From assembly GCF_001701025.1 (NCBI RefSeq), contig NZ_CP016793.1:6014001-6078000 (forward strand): a DNA stretch of 64,000 nucleotides, read 5' to 3'. The notes beneath the pieces were generated by a model that saw nothing but the letters and a program-made list of their open reading frames with translations, did not search any database and was not told the DNA's origin. Below are positions 4,977 to 11,817 of this stretch, piece by piece; positions within the stretch are counted from its first letter, which is position 1; every line of letters starts with the position of its first letter. A program made the translations under genes and the position numbers. Source of the DNA: Lentzea guizhouensis (GTDB lineage: Bacteria; Actinomycetota; Actinomycetes; Mycobacteriales; Pseudonocardiaceae).

Positions 4977-7900
4977 GGGTGCAGGGACTCCAGTTCGGAC
5001 AGCAGTTCGGAGGTGGTGATGGCGTCGAGCTGGACGGTGGTGGGGGCGTTCTTCTGGGCTGACCAGTAGCCCCTGCCGTCGGGGGAGTACCAGATGTCGG
5101 TGAACTTGATCTCGGGGAAGACGTCGATGGCGCCGACCGCGATGCCGGGGTCGAGGGAGGCGACCAGTGCGCCGCCGGTGGAGAGCGGGCGGGTGATCCA
5201 GCACTCGACGCCGGCGTCCTGGGGTTCGCCGCGGACCCAGCCCTTCTTGGTGAGGCCGAGGATCTTGCCGACCGGGTAGGGCTGGTCGGTGTACTTGTTC
5301 AGGTGCGCCAGGGCGTCCTCGCCGGAGGCCAGGACGTGCAGCGGGCGGCCGAGCTGGGGGAACGGCTGGAGGATCTCGTAGTCGGCGAAGACCTCGCCCC
5401 ACGCCTGCAGCGTGTCCCGCAGGGCGACCGGGTGGGCGACGCGGACGGTGGCCGTCTCCGGGAGGGTGAGCTCGTCGTCGTTCGCGTCGGCGAGGGTGCG
5501 GTCCTCGGCCAGGCGGAACGAGACGCCGCCGTCAGTGATCCAGACCAGGCGGCGGACGATGTGCCACAGCAGCGGGTGGGCGGCCAGGACCGTGTGGAAC
5601 TCCTCGGCGGTCCAGGTGCGCTGGTCGCACATCGCGCGTTCGAGGCGGTGGATCTGGTCGGCCGCGACTGTGCGAACGTCCTTCTTCAGGGCCGCGTAGC
5701 GCTTGTGCTCCAGCGGGGCGAGGTCCTGGTCGTCCTTGGCGCCCGGCTTGGGGAGCTCCTTGCGGCGCTTGCCGTCGGGGTCGAGGACGTAGGGCTTGAG
5801 CTGTTCGTCGAAGCCGACGCGGAACTGGCGCGGGCCGTAGTCGATCACCAGCGAGGCCTCGTCGTCGAGGCCGAGCCTCGGGACCAGGCGGTCGGCGAGC
5901 TGGTCGCGGGACAGGCCGAGCTCGGCGGCGATCTGGGCGACCTTCTCCTGGGCGCGGGTCTTGAGGCCCTTGAACTTCACCTTCTCCGCGATGGCGTTGA
6001 GGTGGGACAGGGCGACCTCGGTGCCGATGTCGGCCAGGACGTCCAGGCCCGTCACGGCCCTGGTGTGCTGGCTCTCGCCGGGCCAGGCGCGGATCAACGG
6101 CGACAGCGCGCGGACCGTGCTGTCGTCGCCGAGCCAGCCGAGGCCGGTCAGCGCCCAGCCCTCCTTCGACGGGGCGCCGATCTCCTGCCAGCGCTGGAAG
6201 ACGGCCCACGCGAAGGTCGCCAGCGAGTCGCGGTCCAGTGCCTTGCGGGCGATCGGCAGGCCCGCGTAGACCTCGCCGGGCTTGGACAGCGCGGCCATCA
6301 TCAGCAGGTGGCCGGCGGCCTCCGCGGACAGCGCCGACCTGCGGTCGCGCAGCAGGACCTGGGGGAGCAGCCGGGCATCGGCCCACTCGCCGACCACCGG
6401 CAGCTTCGCGGGCAGCACGTCGACCGGGTCGACCGACAGCAGCGTCCGGATGCCCTCCTGCGCCGCTTCGGGTGCGGCCGCCACCACGTCCACGCCCATC
6501 GCGTGCAGCTGGCGGAGCGCTGCCTCGGCGCCGCGGCGTTCGGCACCGGGCTTGCCCAGGGCGGGAACGACGAGGAGGCTCGCCGCCGTCTCGCGGTGCC
6601 GGGCCAGCCACGCCAGCGCGACCTTGCGCACCTGCTTGAGCCGCACGAACCAGTCCGCCATCAGCGCGGCGACCTCCGGGGTGGCGAACGGGAGCACGAC
6701 CACGGCGGCGTTCGAGCTCGCCTCGACCGTCCGCAGCAGCGGTGGCAGGGCGTCCAGCTCGAACCGCGCGGCCAGCATCTTGCCGGTGAGCTCGGCGCTC
6801 CAGCCCGCGATCGGCCGCCAGCCGGCCAGCAGCGGGCGGACCACGTCCTCCGGTGCCAGCGCGAACAGGTTCCGCGTGCGGTACCCGATCTTGCCTGCCT
6901 GGAACTCGGCCAGGAGGTCCTGCCAGGTCGAGCGGATGTCCCAGTAGCCGTCGTTGAGCCACTCCTCGCGCTCGCCCGGTTCCCACCTGACCGACGGCTC
7001 CGGCACCGGCAGGTCGGTCACCACCACGGGTTTCACCGCCGGCTTGCGGTGCAGCCACGGCGGTGCGGCCAGCACGGCGGGCAGGTCCTCCGGCGGCGCC
7101 TGCGGCACCAGGTCGGCGTCGATCGAGGTGAACCCGGCGGGCGCCTCCAGGTGCGGGTGCTTCACCAGGTGCGCGCTGAGCAACTGGCGCGCGTTGTCGT
7201 CGGTGTCCGCCCGCTCGCCGAGCAGCCTGGCCGCCCGCGCCGGGAACGCCGCCATCATCGTCAGCAACGCCGGGCGCACGTACTTGGTGTCGATGCGGTC
7301 GAGCAGGATCGTGAACGCCTCGTCGGTGGGCAACGCGGTGAGCACCTTCAGCGCCTGCTTGCGCGAGTCGGCCCGCTGGTACGGCTTGTCGAGGGCCTCC
7401 GCGAGCAACGGTGCGATGGCAGGCCCGAGCACGTAGACCGCCGTGTGCAGGATGGTCGCCCCGCTGTTCACCGACACGGGGGACTGCCGGTACTCGTCGA
7501 CCGTGCTGGCGCTGCAGGCAAGCGTCCACCACCCGCCGCGCGAGGCGGTCTGGCACGCCGCGGCGAACCAGTCGGTCCGCGACGGCACGAGGAAGGGGCG
7601 CAGGAAGCCCGAGTTCGGCGTGTCCTGCCGCTCCAGAGCGGCTTCTGCCTCCGCGCGGTCGGCGTCGTCCGCCACCGCCAGTGCGTACCGGGCCACTGTC
7701 AGGACCTCGCCGGGTGTGCTGTCCAGCCGTGGCTGGGCGGGGATGCCGTAGCGGTACAGGTGCGGCTCGCTGCGGGTGTTCTGGTACGGGAGCCATCGTG
7801 AGCCGGCTTGGACGTCGATGCTCTCGACCAGAGCCTCCACCGCGAACGCCAGCCCGTGGTCGGTGATCCAGTGGTGGAGTGTGGCCACGTCCCTGGTCGT

Positions 7901-8697: not shown

Positions 8698-10251
8698 TCA
8701 GAACCAGATCGCGGTGTCCGGCGGGAGCAGCAGCGACCCGTCGCGGACGCCGTAGTAGGACGAGGCCAGCAGCACCGCGCCGGGGTCCGGCAGCGAGACC
8801 ACCTCACCGGACAGGTTCACGACGCAGGAGACCGAGCGGCCGTCGCGTTCGCGGGTGAACCACAGGACGTCCTCGGGGCCGTCCACCCACGTCACGCCGT
8901 CGCCCGCACCCAGGGCGGGGTGCTCGCGGCGAGCGCGCAAAGCGGTGCGGTAGAAGGACAACATCGAGTCCTGGTCGGCGGCCTGGGCCTCGACGCTGAG
9001 CTTCGCCCAGTCCGCGGGCTGCGGCAGCCACGACCCGCCGGTGCCGAACCCGAGCGACGGGCCGGTCGTGGTCCACGGCAGCGGCACGCGGCAGCCGTCA
9101 CGGCCGCGTTCGGTGTGCCCGGACCGTTCCCACATCGGGTCCTGCAGCACCTCGTCGGGCAGGTCGAGCACCTCGGGCAGGCCGAGTTCTTCGCCCTGAT
9201 AGAGGTACACGGAACCCGGTAGCGCCAACATCAATGCCAACGCAGCGCGCGCACGGCGCACACCGGTCTCGCCGCCGCCATAACGCGTCACGTGCCGCTG
9301 AACGTCGTGATTGGACAACACCCACGTGGTAGGCGCACCGACGGGAGCCACCGCCGCCAGCGACGAGTCGATCACCGACCGCAGTGACGGGAGGTCCCAC
9401 GACGCCGTCAGGTAGTGGAAGTTGAACGCCTGGTGCATCTCGTCGGGACGCAGGTACATCGCCGTGCGCTCGGCGGAAGGCGTCCACGCCTCGGCCACCA
9501 GCACCCGCTCGCCCGGATACGAGTCCACGACCGCACGCCACTCGCGGTGGATCTCGTGCACACCGTCCTGGTCGAAGAACGGCAACGGTTCCGTGCCCAG
9601 CAGCTTCAGCTGGTCGGTGTGCCCGATGTCCGGCAGCCCGGCCGCCTTGACCATCCCGTGCGCCACGTCCACGCGGAACCCGTCGACGCCCAGGTCCAGC
9701 CAGAACCGCAGGATCGACAGGAACTCCTCCCGCACCTCCGGCAGCTCCCAGTTCAGGTCCGGCTGCTCCGGCGCGAACAGGTGCAGGTACCAGGACCCGT
9801 CCTCGACGCGCGTCCAGGCGGGCCCGCCGAAGACGGACTCCCAGTCGTTGGGCGGCCGGTCGCCCACGCCCTCGCGGAAGACGTACCGCTCGCGGTTGCG
9901 GCCGGCCAGCGCCTCCTGGAACCAGACGTGCTGGTCGGAGCTGTGGTTCGGCACGATGTCGACGATCACGCGGAGGCCCAGCTCGTGCGCGTCCTCGATC
10001 AACGACCGGACGTCGTCGAGCTCGCCGAACGCCGGGTCCACCGCGCGGTAGTCGGCCACGTCGTAGCCGCCGTCGGCCATCGGCGAGGCGTAGAACGGCG
10101 TGATCCACACCGCGTCGACGCCCAGGTCGCGGAGGTGGGGCAGGCGTGAGCGGATGCCGGGCAGGTCACCGACGCCGTCACCGTTCGAGTCGGCGAAGCT
10201 GCGCACGTAGACCTGGTAGATGACGGCGTGTCGCCACCAGTCCTGGGACAT
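8698..10251 (-). CDS. GH13 alpha-glucosidase
   Basis: A 517-residue glycoside hydrolase family 13 enzyme, likely a cytoplasmic exo-alpha-glucosidase or oligo-1,6-glucosidase acting on maltose-type or isomaltose-type oligosaccharides. It has no signal peptide. The barrel starts WWRHAVIYQVYVRSFADSNGDGVGDL, typical of the oligo-1,6-glucosidase subgroup. Visible active-site residues are the nucleophile D195 (GFRVDVAHG), acid/base E254 (LVAEAW) and D316 (LSNHDV). Length is normal for the family. It is monocistronic, preceded by an AAGGAC-type ribosome site and two LacI-like operators, so sugar-responsive repression is likely. No transporter genes lie beside it. Confidence 0.92.
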   Translation of the reverse strand: MSQDWWRHAVIYQVYVRSFADSNGDGVGDLPGIRSRLPHLRDLGVDAVWITPFYASPMADGGYDVADYRAVDPAFGELDDVRSLIEDAHELGLRVIVDIVPNHSSDQHVWFQEALAGRNRERYVFREGVGDRPPNDWESVFGGPAWTRVEDGSWYLHLFAPEQPDLNWELPEVREEFLSILRFWLDLGVDGFRVDVAHGMVKAAGLPDIGHTDQLKLLGTEPLPFFDQDGVHEIHREWRAVVDSYPGERVLVAEAWTPSAERTAMYLRPDEMHQAFNFHYLTASWDLPSLRSVIDSSLAAVAPVGAPTTWVLSNHDVQRHVTRYGGGETGVRRARAALALMLALPGSVYLYQGEELGLPEVLDLPDEVLQDPMWERSGHTERGRDGCRVPLPWTTTGPSLGFGTGGSWLPQPADWAKLSVEAQAADQDSMLSFYRTALRARREHPALGAGDGVTWVDGPEDVLWFTRERDGRSVSCVVNLSGEVVSLPDPGAVLLASSYYGVRDGSLLLPPDTAIWF

Positions 10252-10381: not shown

Positions 10382-10411
10382 TTGACCCTGCGGCGGCACG
10401 CACGGCAGAGT
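10382..10411 (+). promoter_or_regulatory. Putative sigma-70 promoter of the leader-tRNA operon
   Basis: TTGACC (10382-10387) and CAGAGT (10406-10411) are separated by 18 bases. This fits the actinobacterial housekeeping consensus TTGAC - 16 to 18 - TANNNT, apart from C for T at the first -10 base. The start point would fall near 10418, about 23 bases before the leader start codon. Confidence 0.5.
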
Positions 10412-10440
10412 TGTGCCAACGAACCCGAGGGGAGGCAGTT

Positions 10441-10488
10441 GTGAGGCAACACCAGCACATGCAGCAGCTGCCGGAGCTCCCGTCATGA
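10441..10488 (+). CDS. Leader peptide ORF, MRQHQHMQQLPELPS (15 codons)
   Basis: GTG at 10441 is preceded five bases upstream by GGAGG (10431-10435) inside GAGGGGAGG, a strong ribosome site. Codons 3-9 are CAA CAC CAG CAC ATG CAG CAG, so the peptide reads Met-Arg-Gln-His-Gln-His-Met-Gln-Gln before Leu-Pro-Glu-Leu-Pro-Ser. That is four Gln, two His and one internal Met in seven codons. The three tRNA genes downstream have anticodons CTG, GTG and CAT, which read exactly Gln CAG, His and ATG. The last codons encode a seven-base segment that can pair with the 5' arm of the following terminator. I infer that this is a transcription-attenuation leader sensing translation of Gln, His and Met codons. 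It is too short for standard gene finders. Confidence 0.75.
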   Translation: MRQHQHMQQLPELPS

Positions 10489-10513
10489 CCTGAACCGTTA
10501 TGCAACCGGGAGC
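10476..10513 (+). promoter_or_regulatory. Putative antiterminator hairpin
   Basis: GCTCCCG (10476-10482, within the last leader codons) is perfectly complementary to CGGGAGC (10507-10513). Forming this helix uses three bases (10511-10513) of the terminator's 5' arm, so the two structures exclude each other. A ribosome finishing at the TGA (10486-10488) would cover the first strand and favour the terminator. A ribosome stalled early in the Gln/His/Met run would leave it free. A competing upstream pairing (GGCAG 10434-10438 with CTGCC 10468-10472) could hide the ribosome site when translation is absent. Confidence 0.6.
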
Positions 10514-10545
10514 CGCCCGTCGCCATCGCGACGAGCGGCTTTTTT
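10511..10545 (+). terminator. Rho-independent attenuator terminator before the tRNA genes
   Basis: AGCCGC (10511-10516) pairs with GCGGCT (10535-10540). Inside it CGTCGC (10518-10523) pairs with GCGACG (10528-10533) around a four-base loop, with one C/A mismatch between the two helices. Six T residues (10540-10545) follow. This is a textbook intrinsic terminator placed between the leader ORF and the first tRNA, three bases before tRNA-Gln begins, so it would stop transcription of the tRNAs when it forms. Confidence 0.85.
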
Positions 10546-10547
10546 GA

Positions 10548-10620
10548 TGCCCGTTGGTCCAATCGGCACGGACGCCGCGCTCTGGACGCGGAGATCGAGG
10601 TTCGAGTCCTCGACGGGCAG
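10548..10620 (+). tRNA. tRNA-Gln, anticodon CTG
   Basis: A 73-base cloverleaf. The acceptor stem TGCCCGT/ACGGGCA has seven pairs including T1-A72, a known tRNA-Gln identity element. The D stem is GTCC/GGAC with GG in its loop. The anticodon stem CCGCG/CGCGG carries loop CTCTGGA (anticodon CTG at 10582-10584). The T arm CGAGG/CCTCG has loop TTCGAGT. CCA is not encoded. It is the first of three tightly packed tRNAs behind the attenuator. Confidence 0.88.
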
Positions 10621-10622
10621 CT

Positions 10623-10699
10623 GTGACCGAAGCCGAAGCAGTCGAGGCGCCAGGTTGTGGTCCTGGTCGAAGCCGGTGCGAGTCCGGTCGGTCACCCCA
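10623..10699 (+). tRNA. tRNA-His, anticodon GTG
   Basis: The acceptor stem GTGACCG/CGGTCAC is followed by C73 and an encoded CCA (10697-10699). The anticodon stem CCAGG/CCTGG holds loop TTGTGGT (anticodon GTG at 10657-10659). The T stem GCCGG/CCGGT has loop TGCGAGT, where the usual TTC starts TGC. The D arm is weak (three pairs, no GG in the loop), and position 8 is A rather than T. The base before G1 is T, so the usual encoded G-1 is not evident. It starts two bases after tRNA-Gln. The anticodon and C73 support His, but the body is divergent from a housekeeping tRNA-His. Confidence 0.8.
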
Positions 10700-10700
10700 C

Positions 10701-10769
10701 CGCGCGGGATCCGGTGATCACTCAGGCCTCATGAGCCCGAGGTGCCTGGTTCGACACCAGGACGCGCGA
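10701..10769 (+). tRNA. tRNA-like gene with anticodon CAT (probable Met), D arm reduced
   Basis: The acceptor CGCGCGG/ACGCGCG gives six of seven pairs. The anticodon stem CAGGC/GCCCG (four of five pairs) has loop CTCATGA with CAT at 10730-10732. The T arm CCTGG/CCAGG has the canonical loop TTCGACA, and the variable region is AGGTG. Only about 13 bases replace the D arm and I can draw no proper D stem, so the molecule resembles a D-armless tRNA. CAT could mean Met, initiator Met or Ile2; the ATG in the leader and lack of Ile codons favours Met. It starts one base after the CCA of tRNA-His. Standard scanners may miss it. Confidence 0.6.
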
Positions 10770-10770
10770 C

Positions 10771-11442
10771 TCACTTCAACGGCGTGCGCAGCTCGGCCGC
10801 GCGAGCCGCGCCGAACCGGGTGGCGAGCACCTGGTCGACCATCTGCGCCGAGGACAGGCTCTTGCTCGCGGCGAGCTGGTCGAGCGCGTCGCTCAGCGCT
10901 TCGACCAGCGCGGGGTAGTCCAGGGCCCAGCTGCCGGCCGTGTTGTGCGCGAACGTCACGACGATCGAGTCGGTGCCCGGCTGGGCGGCGGTCGCCGTCG
11001 CACCGTCACCGATGACTTTCAACCCGGTCAGGTCGACCGGCGCGACGAAGTCGGTGAACACCGTCAGCACGGCCTCCAGCGCCCCGGCCTCGCCCTCCGC
11101 GAACAGCGTCGGCGGCTGCGCGTGCCGCAGCGCGTAGACCAGCAGGTGCTGCAGGGTCGGCAACTGCGCCAGCCGGCTCTCGGTGCTGCGCAACGCGTGT
11201 TGCTGCAGCTGCTCGGCGAAGGTGAAGGAGGCGGGCGTGCACGCGGCCATCGCGGCCTTGCCGTCGCCGCTGTTCACCCGCTCGACGAAGTTCTTGAACA
11301 ACGTCCGGATGAACTCGTCGTCGGTGAGCGTCTCGCTGACGGTGGTGATCGGGGTCGGCCCTGACCGCAGGGGGATCTCCGCCGCGGGGGTGGCGGAACA
11401 CGCACTGAGCACCACGGCCAAAGCGGCCACCAGCCATCGCAT
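10771..11442 (-). CDS. Lipoprotein of unknown function
   Basis: A 223-residue protein starting MRWLVAALAVVLSACSATPA, a lipoprotein signal peptide with lipobox LSAC and the lipidated Cys at residue 16. The mature part has no domain I recognise. It contains a helical segment beginning LTDDEFIRTLFKNFVERVNSGDGKAAMAACTP, reminiscent of SnoaL/NTF2-like lumazine-binding folds seen in secreted actinobacterial proteins, but that is only a hint. The start is chosen for the signal peptide; there is no clear ribosome site. It ends two bases after the CAT tRNA on the opposite strand, so tRNA readthrough would be antisense to it. Confidence 0.75.
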   Translation of the reverse strand: MRWLVAALAVVLSACSATPAAEIPLRSGPTPITTVSETLTDDEFIRTLFKNFVERVNSGDGKAAMAACTPASFTFAEQLQQHALRSTESRLAQLPTLQHLLVYALRHAQPPTLFAEGEAGALEAVLTVFTDFVAPVDLTGLKVIGDGATATAAQPGTDSIVVTFAHNTAGSWALDYPALVEALSDALDQLAASKSLSSAQMVDQVLATRFGAARAAELRTPLK

Positions 11443-11499
11443 GTGGGGCACACTAGGGCGTTCGCAGTCGCTGGAACAGCGAAGTCGATGATCTCGTCG

Positions 11500-11817
11500 A
11501 TCGTTCTTCCGGACACGAGCGGCTTCGCGGAAGAGTGGCAGGCGTGGAAGACGGAACGGGAACGCGGCCCGGCCGATCCGTGCGGATGGCTGGCGCTGGT
11601 GTGTCGCTCGATTGGCTGGAGACGAACGGGTCCGGGCCGGTGACGTCGAGATCGAGATCGCCGGGCGCGGTGGCTGTAGGTCGTGCTCGACTTCAACCGG
11701 GCCGCGAACCTGCCCTGCGCGTTCACGACCTACGCCACCTGCCCGTTGCCGCCCGCGGGCAACCACCTGGCGTTCCAGGTCGAGGCCGGCGAGAAGACGC
11801 CGTACGAGCAGGGCTAG
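11500..11817 (+). pseudogene. DUF1684 family protein remnant
   Basis: Two separated pieces of a DUF1684 protein remain on the plus strand. The N-terminal piece reads SGFAEEWQAWKTERE...GWLALV (about 11520-11600). The reading then changes frame (VSLDWLE). After a deletion the C-terminal piece [25 protein letters not shown]...VEAGEK follows to TAG at 11815-11817, and an in-frame TAG at 11677-11679 precedes it. Intact members are about 200-270 residues and keep a glycine-rich middle that is absent here. The middle deletion makes a sequencing error an insufficient explanation. Its stop overlaps that of the convergent APH-like gene. Confidence 0.7.

What the first reader, a model, noticed from the sequence alone, without database searches (positions are those of the whole stretch)
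10382..10769. Leader-peptide attenuator that appears to control a Gln-His-Met tRNA operon
Seen: a promoter-like pair, a strong ribosome site, and a 15-codon ORF whose codons 3-9 are CAA CAC CAG CAC ATG CAG CAG. A seven-base antiterminator strand in its last codons (10476-10482) pairs with 10507-10513. An intrinsic terminator with six Ts (10511-10545) overlaps that pairing by three bases. Three tRNA genes with anticodons CTG, GTG and CAT start three bases later. The control codons match the three tRNAs exactly. Known: amino-acid operons such as trp and his use stalled leader ribosomes to prevent termination. Inference: when charged tRNA for Gln, His or Met runs short, stalling lets these tRNAs be transcribed, so the cell would sense missing decoding capacity and replace it. 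A plausible use is recovery from a tRNA-cleaving toxin or an aminoacyl-tRNA synthetase inhibitor. I know of no described system of this kind.
Basis: partly seen in the sequence, partly recalled or inferred. Interest (0 to 1): 0.95.

Follow-up and report, generated by a model that had tools for sequence, protein, structure and literature searches.

The report
Codon-list switch for backup tRNA genes
In the soil bacterium Lentzea and its relatives, extra, divergent tRNA genes sit behind a tiny leader gene whose codons match the very tRNAs downstream, plus a terminator hairpin and a competing antiterminator hairpin; this is predicted to work as a switch that turns the extra tRNAs on when ribosomes stall for lack of them, which would likely let the cell replace lost decoding capacity.

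Summary
Window 10382-10769 carries a 15-codon leader ORF (codons 3-9 CAA CAC CAG CAC ATG CAG CAG), an antiterminator overlapping an intrinsic terminator, and tRNA-Gln/His/Met genes. It is conserved in 23 of 24 genomes of its genus (Lentzea); there a Cys codon in the leader goes with a fourth gene, tRNA-Cys (8/0/1/14, p=1.8e-5). A covariance model of the two hairpins matched 70 of 200 genomes of the family Pseudonocardiaceae. Of 150 places read, 136 have same-strand tRNA genes downstream, and leader codons match those tRNAs far above chance (1136 of 3190 against 574 shuffled, 0 of 2000 shuffles; 0 of 5000 when swapped only within a genome). The window genome has three such clusters besides ordinary tRNA genes. 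The window's Gln and His genes are closer to actinophage tRNAs (86.5%, 81%) than to the genome's own (65%). One member carries RtcB RNA ligase, two an RNA-repair HAD gene. Best reading: ribosome-mediated attenuators that sense missing charged tRNA and switch on replacement tRNAs. The response itself, and tRNA cleavage as trigger, are untested. Ten searches of an open-access library found no description.

The parts
10382..10411 (+). promoter-like hexamers TTGACC (10382-10387) and CAGAGT (10406-10411), 18-base spacer
   Evidence: sequence; the TTG and the CAGAGT are invariant in 23 of 23 aligned Lentzea loci; not flagged by the consensus scan
10427..10435 (+). ribosome-binding site GAGGGGAGG
   Evidence: sequence
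10441..10488 (+). leader ORF VRQHQHMQQLPELPS and stop; control codons 10447-10467 (CAA CAC CAG CAC ATG CAG CAG)
   Evidence: homologous leaders with Gln, His and Met codons in 23 of 23 loci; codon-to-tRNA match of the family
10476..10482 (+). antiterminator 5' strand (strand 2), inside the last leader codons
   Evidence: covariation
10507..10513 (+). antiterminator 3' strand (strand 3)
   Evidence: covariation
10511..10545 (+). intrinsic terminator (3:4 hairpin and six T), overlapping strand 3 by three bases
   Evidence: -25.0 kcal/mol, z -4.5; model R1 match G000:C1:6024472-6024545, 70.1 bits (this locus trained the model)
10548..10621 (+). tRNA-Gln(CTG), divergent second copy
   Evidence: ARAGORN, Rfam 57.8 bits; 64.9% to the other Gln(ctg) gene of the genome, 86.5% to a phage tRNA-Gln
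10623..10699 (+). tRNA-His(GTG)-like gene with encoded CCA, no encoded G-1
   Evidence: Rfam 41.8 bits for 10623-10696; 65.3% to the other His gene, 81.1% to a phage tRNA-His
10701..10769 (+). tRNA-Met(CAT)-like gene
   Evidence: sequence; Met(cat) called by ARAGORN at this place in 14 of 23 homologous loci, not in the window itself

Best explanation
The element is a leader ORF with overlapping antiterminator and terminator hairpins in front of a tRNA-Gln/tRNA-His/tRNA-Met cluster, and it is predicted to let the cluster be transcribed only when a ribosome stalls at the leader's Gln, His or Met codons for want of the matching charged tRNA. Steps. (1) Shown by sequence: promoter-like hexamers, ribosome site, leader ORF whose codons match the downstream tRNAs, stop codon just after antiterminator strand 2, terminator just before the first tRNA. 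(2) Inferred from trp/his-type attenuators: a ribosome that reaches the stop codon covers strand 2, the 3:4 terminator forms, and the tRNAs stay off. (3) Inferred: a ribosome stalled on the control codons leaves strand 2 free, 2:3 forms first, and the cluster is read. (4) Shown in the family: most such clusters have their own leader, enriched in codons of their own tRNAs. (5) Inferred, weaker: the divergent, partly phage-like tRNAs serve as replacements when the ordinary ones are cleaved or cannot be charged; RNA-repair genes after a few clusters fit this.
For: Codon-to-tRNA match: 133 loci, 1136 of 3190 sensor codons encode an amino acid of the own cluster against 574.3 (sd 28.5) shuffled, 0 of 2000; 83 non-redundant leaders 705 of 2196 against 388.6, 0 of 2000; 118 loci after removing training loci and window orthologues 1036 of 2945 against 548.3, 0 of 2000; leaders swapped only within a genome (35 genomes, 108 loci) 973 of 2554 against 538.1, 0 of 5000; 354 of 371 cluster amino acids have a cognate codon in their leader. 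Frame control: z 18.5 in frame, 4.4 and 3.5 out of frame. tRNA-Cys against Cys codon in 23 Lentzea loci: 8 both, 0 gene only, 1 codon only, 14 neither, p=1.8e-5 (loci are related, so p is nominal). Isoacceptors: TTG is 11 of 31 Leu codons where Leu(caa) is in the cluster, 11 of 269 elsewhere (p=7.8e-7); CAA 9 of 19 where Gln(ttg) is present, 22 of 158 elsewhere (p=0.0014). Covariation of both hairpins. Stop codon at model position +15 in 84 of 133 loci; median 24 nt from model end to first tRNA. Nascent fold forms the antiterminator in 127 of 136 loci; full-leader fold shows the terminator in 107 of 136. Other copies of all three tRNAs exist in the genome. Gln and His genes nearer to phage tRNAs than to those copies. 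RtcB about 20 nt after tRNA-Gln in L028, whose leader region matches the model at 30.8 bits; HAD_SAK_2 gene 22 nt after the cluster in L153, and in L156 by motif.
Against: No expression data: leader translation, leader RNA and readthrough are not shown. 14 of 150 model hits have no ARAGORN tRNA downstream; two loci with tRNAs have no cognate codon (L106, L145); 17 of 371 cluster amino acids, 10 of them Asn, have no codon in the leader. Of 77 non-redundant loci the own cluster fits better than the mean of the others in 60, not in all. The out-of-frame controls are above chance too, though far less. Isoacceptor matching fails for CTG/Leu(cag), CTC+CTT/Leu(gag) and CGG/Arg(ccg); TCG/Ser(cga) (p=0.02) and GAG/Glu(ctc) (p=0.1) run the other way. 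L005 has a Cys codon without tRNA-Cys. Of 30 RtcB loci read, out of more than 150 matches listed, none has a tRNA cluster within the flank held (the one tRNA call, in L039, spans the two ends of the stretch), so the RtcB link rests on one genome. The full-leader fold shows 5' arm pairing to strand 3 in 36 of 136 and no terminator in 29 of 136. Whether these tRNAs are charged and functional is unknown. Amino-acid starvation instead of tRNA loss as the natural signal cannot be excluded from sequence.
Confidence: 0.84

Rival explanations
1. The attenuator is real, but it answers ordinary amino-acid starvation: uncharged tRNA for the listed amino acids stalls the ribosome, and the extra tRNAs are made to scavenge scarce amino acids or to change decoding in stationary phase or during secondary metabolism, with no tie to tRNA damage.
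For: The same stall signal arises from any lack of charged tRNA; in S. lividans leader peptides stand before biosynthesis and synthetase genes (passages of PMC8079986). For CTG, CTC+CTT, TCG and CGG the leader shows no preference for the codon of the own isoacceptor.
Against: More tRNA does not relieve a lack of amino acid (inference). Clusters mix amino acids with no shared pathway, up to 12 tRNAs in one contiguous cluster. TTG, CAA and CGH codons follow the isoacceptor in the cluster.
Confidence: 0.28
2. The clusters are phage- or element-derived tRNA cargo, and the leader and terminator mainly keep them silent; they are relics or decoys with little use to the cell.
For: The window's Gln and His genes resemble phage tRNAs; the tRNAs of the other two clusters of the genome match phage tRNAs too (30 and 427 phage records); several are degenerate, and L122 holds an interrupted tRNA gene. 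HNH genes follow the attenuator in L078, and HNH genes lie inside a phage tRNA array.
Against: 23 of 24 Lentzea genomes keep the unit with matching codons; the codon list follows tRNA content across clusters, which a silent relic would not need. A core pattern finds 0 viral contigs. Ordinary Gln and His tRNAs match phage records as well, so a phage match alone says little.
Confidence: 0.12
3. The leader ORF is an accident of a GC-rich terminator region; the hairpin is an ordinary terminator or processing signal upstream of tRNA genes.
For: The consensus scan does not flag the promoter or the terminator; the leader picker is mechanical; out-of-frame readings show a small excess too.
Against: 0 of 2000 and 0 of 5000 shuffles reach the codon match; the in-frame excess is four to five times the out-of-frame z; covariation of the competing helices; stop codon at a fixed place in 84 of 133 loci.
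Confidence: 0.02

Closest known systems
Ribosome-mediated transcription attenuators of amino-acid operons (trp, his, leu, ilv leaders; mechanism recalled)
   Same: Short leader ORF with control codons, competing 2:3 antiterminator and 3:4 terminator, stop codon beside strand 2.
   Different: The controlled genes are tRNA genes; the control codons are those read by the tRNAs made; one leader lists several unrelated amino acids.
Leader peptides before aminoacyl-tRNA synthetase genes (leuS, trpS, alaS, thrS in S. lividans; passages of PMC8079986)
   Same: Actinobacterial leader peptides that would sense charging and control a charging-related gene.
   Different: They control an enzyme for one amino acid; here the product is a set of tRNAs matching the leader codons.
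T-box riboswitches (recalled)
   Same: Sense uncharged tRNA and control transcription readthrough.
   Different: Direct tRNA binding without translation; no T-box match in the window.
tRNA array units of mycobacteria and their phages (PMC5966550, search listing and term search only)
   Same: Clusters of tRNA genes beside an ordinary tRNA set, in Actinobacteria.
   Different: That text does not use attenuat-, leader, terminator or promoter in its main text; most clusters here are short (84 of 133 have one to three ARAGORN tRNAs) and each stands behind its own attenuator.
Phage tRNAs proposed to escape host anticodon nucleases (PMC10264068, abstract)
   Same: Divergent extra tRNAs; the window's Gln and His genes resemble actinophage tRNAs.
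   Different: Chromosomal, conserved in a genus and placed behind a leader that lists their codons.

Membership tests
Ribosome-mediated transcription attenuator (trp/his type) | short leader ORF with ribosome site and cognate control codons | tested here: met
Ribosome-mediated transcription attenuator (trp/his type) | mutually exclusive antiterminator and intrinsic terminator, conserved with covariation | tested here: met
   overlap 10511-10513
Ribosome-mediated transcription attenuator (trp/his type) | stop codon placed so that a terminating ribosome covers strand 2 | tested here: met
   stop 10486-10488 starts 4 bases after strand 2 (10476-10482); +15 of the model in 84 of 133 loci
Ribosome-mediated transcription attenuator (trp/his type) | leader is translated, and readthrough rises when the cognate charged tRNA is short | not testable with these tools
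   needs reporter or RNA data
T-box riboswitch | T-box sequence and specifier structure | tested here: not met
   no T-box match over cut-off in the window, nor in the focused search to E 10
Prophage or plasmid tRNA cargo | unit lies in a phage or plasmid, or its leader and terminator occur there | tested here: not met
   only single tRNA genes match phage records and one plasmid record; core pattern 0 viral contigs; the flanks of the window element were not tested for phage genes beyond the two neighbouring ORFs read
Functional tRNA genes | tRNA fold with the stated anticodon | tested here: inconclusive
   Gln and His over the Rfam cut-off; Met only in homologues; charging not testable

The most novel reading that the evidence does not exclude
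Pseudonocardiaceae keep a partitioned emergency tRNA set of phage type, each cluster gated by a leader peptide that is a codon list of the tRNAs it makes: a translating ribosome reads the list, and any codon it cannot decode switches on replacements (and in some members RNA-repair enzymes), a self-sensing response to tRNA destruction by anticodon nucleases or to synthetase poisons.
Probability: 0.5. Interest if true: 0.97.

Novelty: new variant of a known kind. Interest (0 to 1): 0.92.

Why it matters
Leader-peptide attenuation is known for amino-acid biosynthesis, transport and synthetase genes; here the controlled product would be the tRNA itself, so the sensor codons and the product are two ends of one decoding event. 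That would be a simple feedback by which a cell measures its decoding capacity codon by codon. It offers a testable function for divergent tRNA clusters, whose purpose in bacteria and phages is debated, and a candidate host-side answer to tRNA-cleaving toxins. It also gives more than a hundred natural pairs of codon list and tRNA set for experiments.

Tried and rejected
Chance ORF: rejected by conservation and permutation. Phylogenetic artefact: non-redundant and within-genome shuffles still reject chance. T-box or other catalogued regulator: only tRNA passes the Rfam cut-off in the window. RtcB as a general partner: 30 RtcB loci were read (those with locus ids, out of more than 150 matches listed) and none shows a tRNA cluster within the flank held. 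Window element as phage cargo: 115 phage records match, each listed place covering 22-24% of the query, that is one tRNA gene; core pattern 0 viral contigs; one plasmid record has a 69-base match. The other two clusters of the genome match 30 and 427 phage records, from varied hosts and partly under other tRNA names. Control queries with the genome's other Gln and His tRNAs match 45 and 248 phage records, so a phage match alone says little; the comparison is what counts, and it was made for Gln and His only. Rest of the class: 2 of 394 genomes match, both in the same family; the model was trained inside the family and fewer candidates per genome were scored, so divergent analogues would be missed. 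Empty site in G023: the best protein match there to the neighbouring ORF (66%) lies among other genes, so the orthologous site was not established. The first alignment of the genus loci used the wrong strand for part of the loci and was replaced. The leader picker is mechanical and probably takes a wrong start in some loci; none was corrected by hand. Nine of the 150 loci belong to the 11 sequences that trained model R1; one search repeats the test without them.

Full report
What is there. The window (G000:C1:6014001-6078000) holds a compact unit on the + strand, between an ORF read the other way (8698-10251, a GH13-like glycosidase by eye) and another ORF read the other way (10771-11766): TTGACC 10382-10387 and CAGAGT 10406-10411, ribosome site GAGGGGAGG, a 15-codon ORF 10441-10488 with codons 3-9 CAA CAC CAG CAC ATG CAG CAG, strand 2 GCTCCCG 10476-10482, strand 3 CGGGAGC 10507-10513, terminator 10511-10545, tRNA-Gln(CTG) 10548-10621, tRNA-His(GTG) 10623-10696 and a tRNA-Met(CAT)-like gene about 10701-10769. 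ARAGORN and the whole-window Rfam search see only the Gln gene; the His gene reaches 41.8 bits in a focused search; the Met gene is called by ARAGORN only in homologues (14 of 23). The consensus scan flagged neither the promoter nor this terminator.

Conservation in the genus. Of the 24 genomes of the genus, 23 hold the element; G023 does not. The genus is Lentzea: a contig of G012 and the record NZ_VSRL01000329.1 (Lentzea indica) have the same length, 8537, and the same model match at 5850-5930. The 23 aligned loci keep the hexamers, ribosome site, leader, both hairpins and tRNAs; the usual leader core is M-Q-H-M-(R or C)-H-Q-H. In the eight loci with tRNA-Cys(GCA) as fourth gene the leader has a Cys codon at the variable place; of the 15 without it one (L005) has a Cys codon (Fisher p=1.8e-5, nominal because the loci are related). 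The leader thus follows the tRNA content.

A family-wide system. Loci of other genera found by weak DNA similarity proved to be tRNA clusters with their own leader, antiterminator and terminator: Leu-Leu-Gln behind MNTAQLLSPQQLPPAASPS, Asn-Met behind MTNRDRMHCGGSPP, Trp-Asp-Phe behind MAATWDRADRDWFPDF... (leaders). A covariance model (R1, 11 sequences) matched 70 of 200 genomes of the family and 17 of 46 genera at E 1e-3. I read all 150 places that one search lists (it says that more matches are not listed); the sequence comes. A mechanical picker gave a leader in 148 and a same-strand ARAGORN tRNA in 136; 133 had a leader plus a cluster starting within 400 nt. Nine of the 150 are training loci. 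Of the 14 without an ARAGORN tRNA, L122, L146 and L182 show tRNA remnants by eye and L078 an HNH gene. Named records with the core pattern (14 stretches) belong to Lentzea, Actinophytocola, Kibdelosporangium, Amycolatopsis, Actinokineospora, Pseudonocardia, Saccharothrix, Crossiella and Allokutzneria, plus one record titled Rhodococcus rhodnii; the nine genera are in Pseudonocardiaceae. In the class, 2 of 394 genomes match, both of this family.

The codon list is not chance. Sensor codons (after the start, before strand 2) encode an amino acid of the own cluster in 1136 of 3190 cases; shuffling leaders among clusters gives 574.3 (sd 28.5) and never reaches it in 2000 shuffles. The 83 non-redundant leaders give 705 of 2196 against 388.6, 0 of 2000. 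Swapping only among clusters of one genome gives 973 of 2554 against 538.1, 0 of 5000. Without training loci and window orthologues: 1036 of 2945 against 548.3, 0 of 2000. The signal is mainly in frame (z 18.5 against 4.4 and 3.5). Of 371 cluster amino acids 354 have a codon in their leader. Plain cases: MTQSRTQELLLLLLLLSCADSPP before Leu(gag) Leu(cag); MKRTDLHCCCPGSPP before Cys...ADDRDDLFFWHL... before Trp Asp Phe. Exceptions: L106 and L145 have no cognate codon; of 77 non-redundant loci 60 fit their own cluster better than the mean of the others.

Amino acid or tRNA species? For some isoacceptors the leader uses the very codon that the cluster tRNA reads: TTG with Leu(caa), CAA with Gln(ttg), CGT/CGC/CGA with Arg(acg), GAA with Glu(ttc), and weakly AGC/AGT with Ser(gct) and GGA/GGG with Gly(tcc). 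For Leu(cag), Leu(gag) and Arg(ccg) no preference is seen, and TCG with Ser(cga) and GAG with Glu(ctc) go the other way. In the non-redundant set the TTG, CAA and Arg results remain (p=0.0011, 0.016, 0.00013); the GAA, Ser(gct) and Gly results do not reach 0.05. This leans towards sensing of tRNA species but does not settle it.

Structure. On 104 aligned matches 94.5% of pair cells are standard pairs; slid partners give 25-53%; 11 of 15 pairs have changes on both sides against 4.9 in shuffles. The alignment was fitted to the model, which favours the structure. Without the upstream leader, as under a stalled ribosome, nascent RNA forms the antiterminator in 127 of 136 loci; the unmasked leader folds with the terminator in 107 of 136. 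The stop codon lies at +15 of the model in 84 of 133 loci, where a terminating ribosome would cover strand 2 (inference).

Second copies. G000 has 66 tRNA matches; ARAGORN genes in the stretches fetched, with Gln(ctg), His(gtg) and five Met(cat) genes elsewhere and genes for all 20 amino acids outside the three clusters. R1 finds three units in G000: the window; 3635236 (Arg, Pro, Lys; L135); 5640021 (a Trp-like gene read by eye, Leu, Ala, Ile; L172). The window's Gln gene is 64.9% identical to the other Gln(ctg) gene and 86.5% to that of Rhodococcus phage RGL3; its His gene 65.3% and 81.1% (Gordonia phage Sixama). These two tRNAs look phage-related, yet the attenuator core pattern was not found in viral contigs.

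Partners. L028 (another genus): leader, Gln gene, then RtcB starting about 20 nt later; its leader region matches R1 at 30.8 bits. Only one genome of that genus is held. L153: a gene with HAD_SAK_2, named by Pfam a domain of RNA-repair proteins (E 2e-7), 22 nt after an eight-tRNA cluster; of six clusters of this type searched two (L153, L156) show it. Seven of eight loci searched (six of seven Gly/Gln/Leu/Ser-type clusters, and L122) are followed by a gene with a shared motif; its copy in L276 matches NCBIfam NF041916 (SCO0854/MXAN_6230 family) at 332 bits, below that family's cut-off of 600, and nothing in Pfam.

Literature. Ten searches listed no paper whose title or abstract start describes attenuated tRNA operons; most subscription papers are not in this library. 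Passages of PMC8079986 list eight leader peptides in S. lividans, before biosynthesis, transport and synthetase genes. A term search of PMC5966550 on tRNA arrays shows no use of attenuat-, leader, terminator or promoter. [quoted passage not shown]

Verdict. The attenuator anatomy and the codon list are shown; control by charged tRNA is inferred from the anatomy with high confidence; the purpose, replacing tRNAs that are cleaved or cannot be charged, is a good but untested inference.

Noticed in passing
clusters of the 150 loci, e.g. L154, L065, L172 (G000:C1:5640202): Leu(cag) (33 genes) and Leu(gag) (26 genes) called in these stretches are 74-77 nt, without the long variable arm usual for bacterial tRNA-Leu, while Leu(caa), Ser and Tyr genes are mostly 83-93 nt; three Leu genes annotated in Gordonia phage Sixama are 74-76 nt too. 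What charges them is open.
   Followed up: partly
window 10622-10699: The His-like gene has T where the other His gene of the genome has an encoded G-1, carries an encoded CCA, and has the T-loop TGCGAGT.
   Followed up: no
L122 (G190:C18:25523), downstream of the match: A tRNA gene behind an attenuator seems to be interrupted by an insertion in the anticodon region; a gene with the motif seen after Gly/Gln/Leu/Ser clusters follows.
   Followed up: no
L062, L110, L122, L123, L131, L137, L157: A shared gene related to the SCO0854/MXAN_6230 family (NF041916, below cut-off in L276) follows tRNA clusters on the same strand.
   Followed up: partly
L078 (G226:C27) and L198 (G109:C9): An HNH endonuclease gene follows the attenuator directly in L078 (Pfam HNH); a similar protein follows the tRNA cluster in L198 (not scanned).
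   Followed up: partly
L106 (G023:C15:217556): The Lentzea genome that lacks the window element has another attenuator with one tRNA called Asn(att) and an R2K ATP-grasp gene 14 nt later; its leader has no Asn codon.
   Followed up: partly
   Followed up: no
G000:C1:3635236 (L135) and G000:C1:5640021 (L172): Two further attenuated tRNA clusters lie in the window's own genome; in L135 the leader has a Lys codon and the cluster a Lys(ctt) gene.
   Followed up: partly
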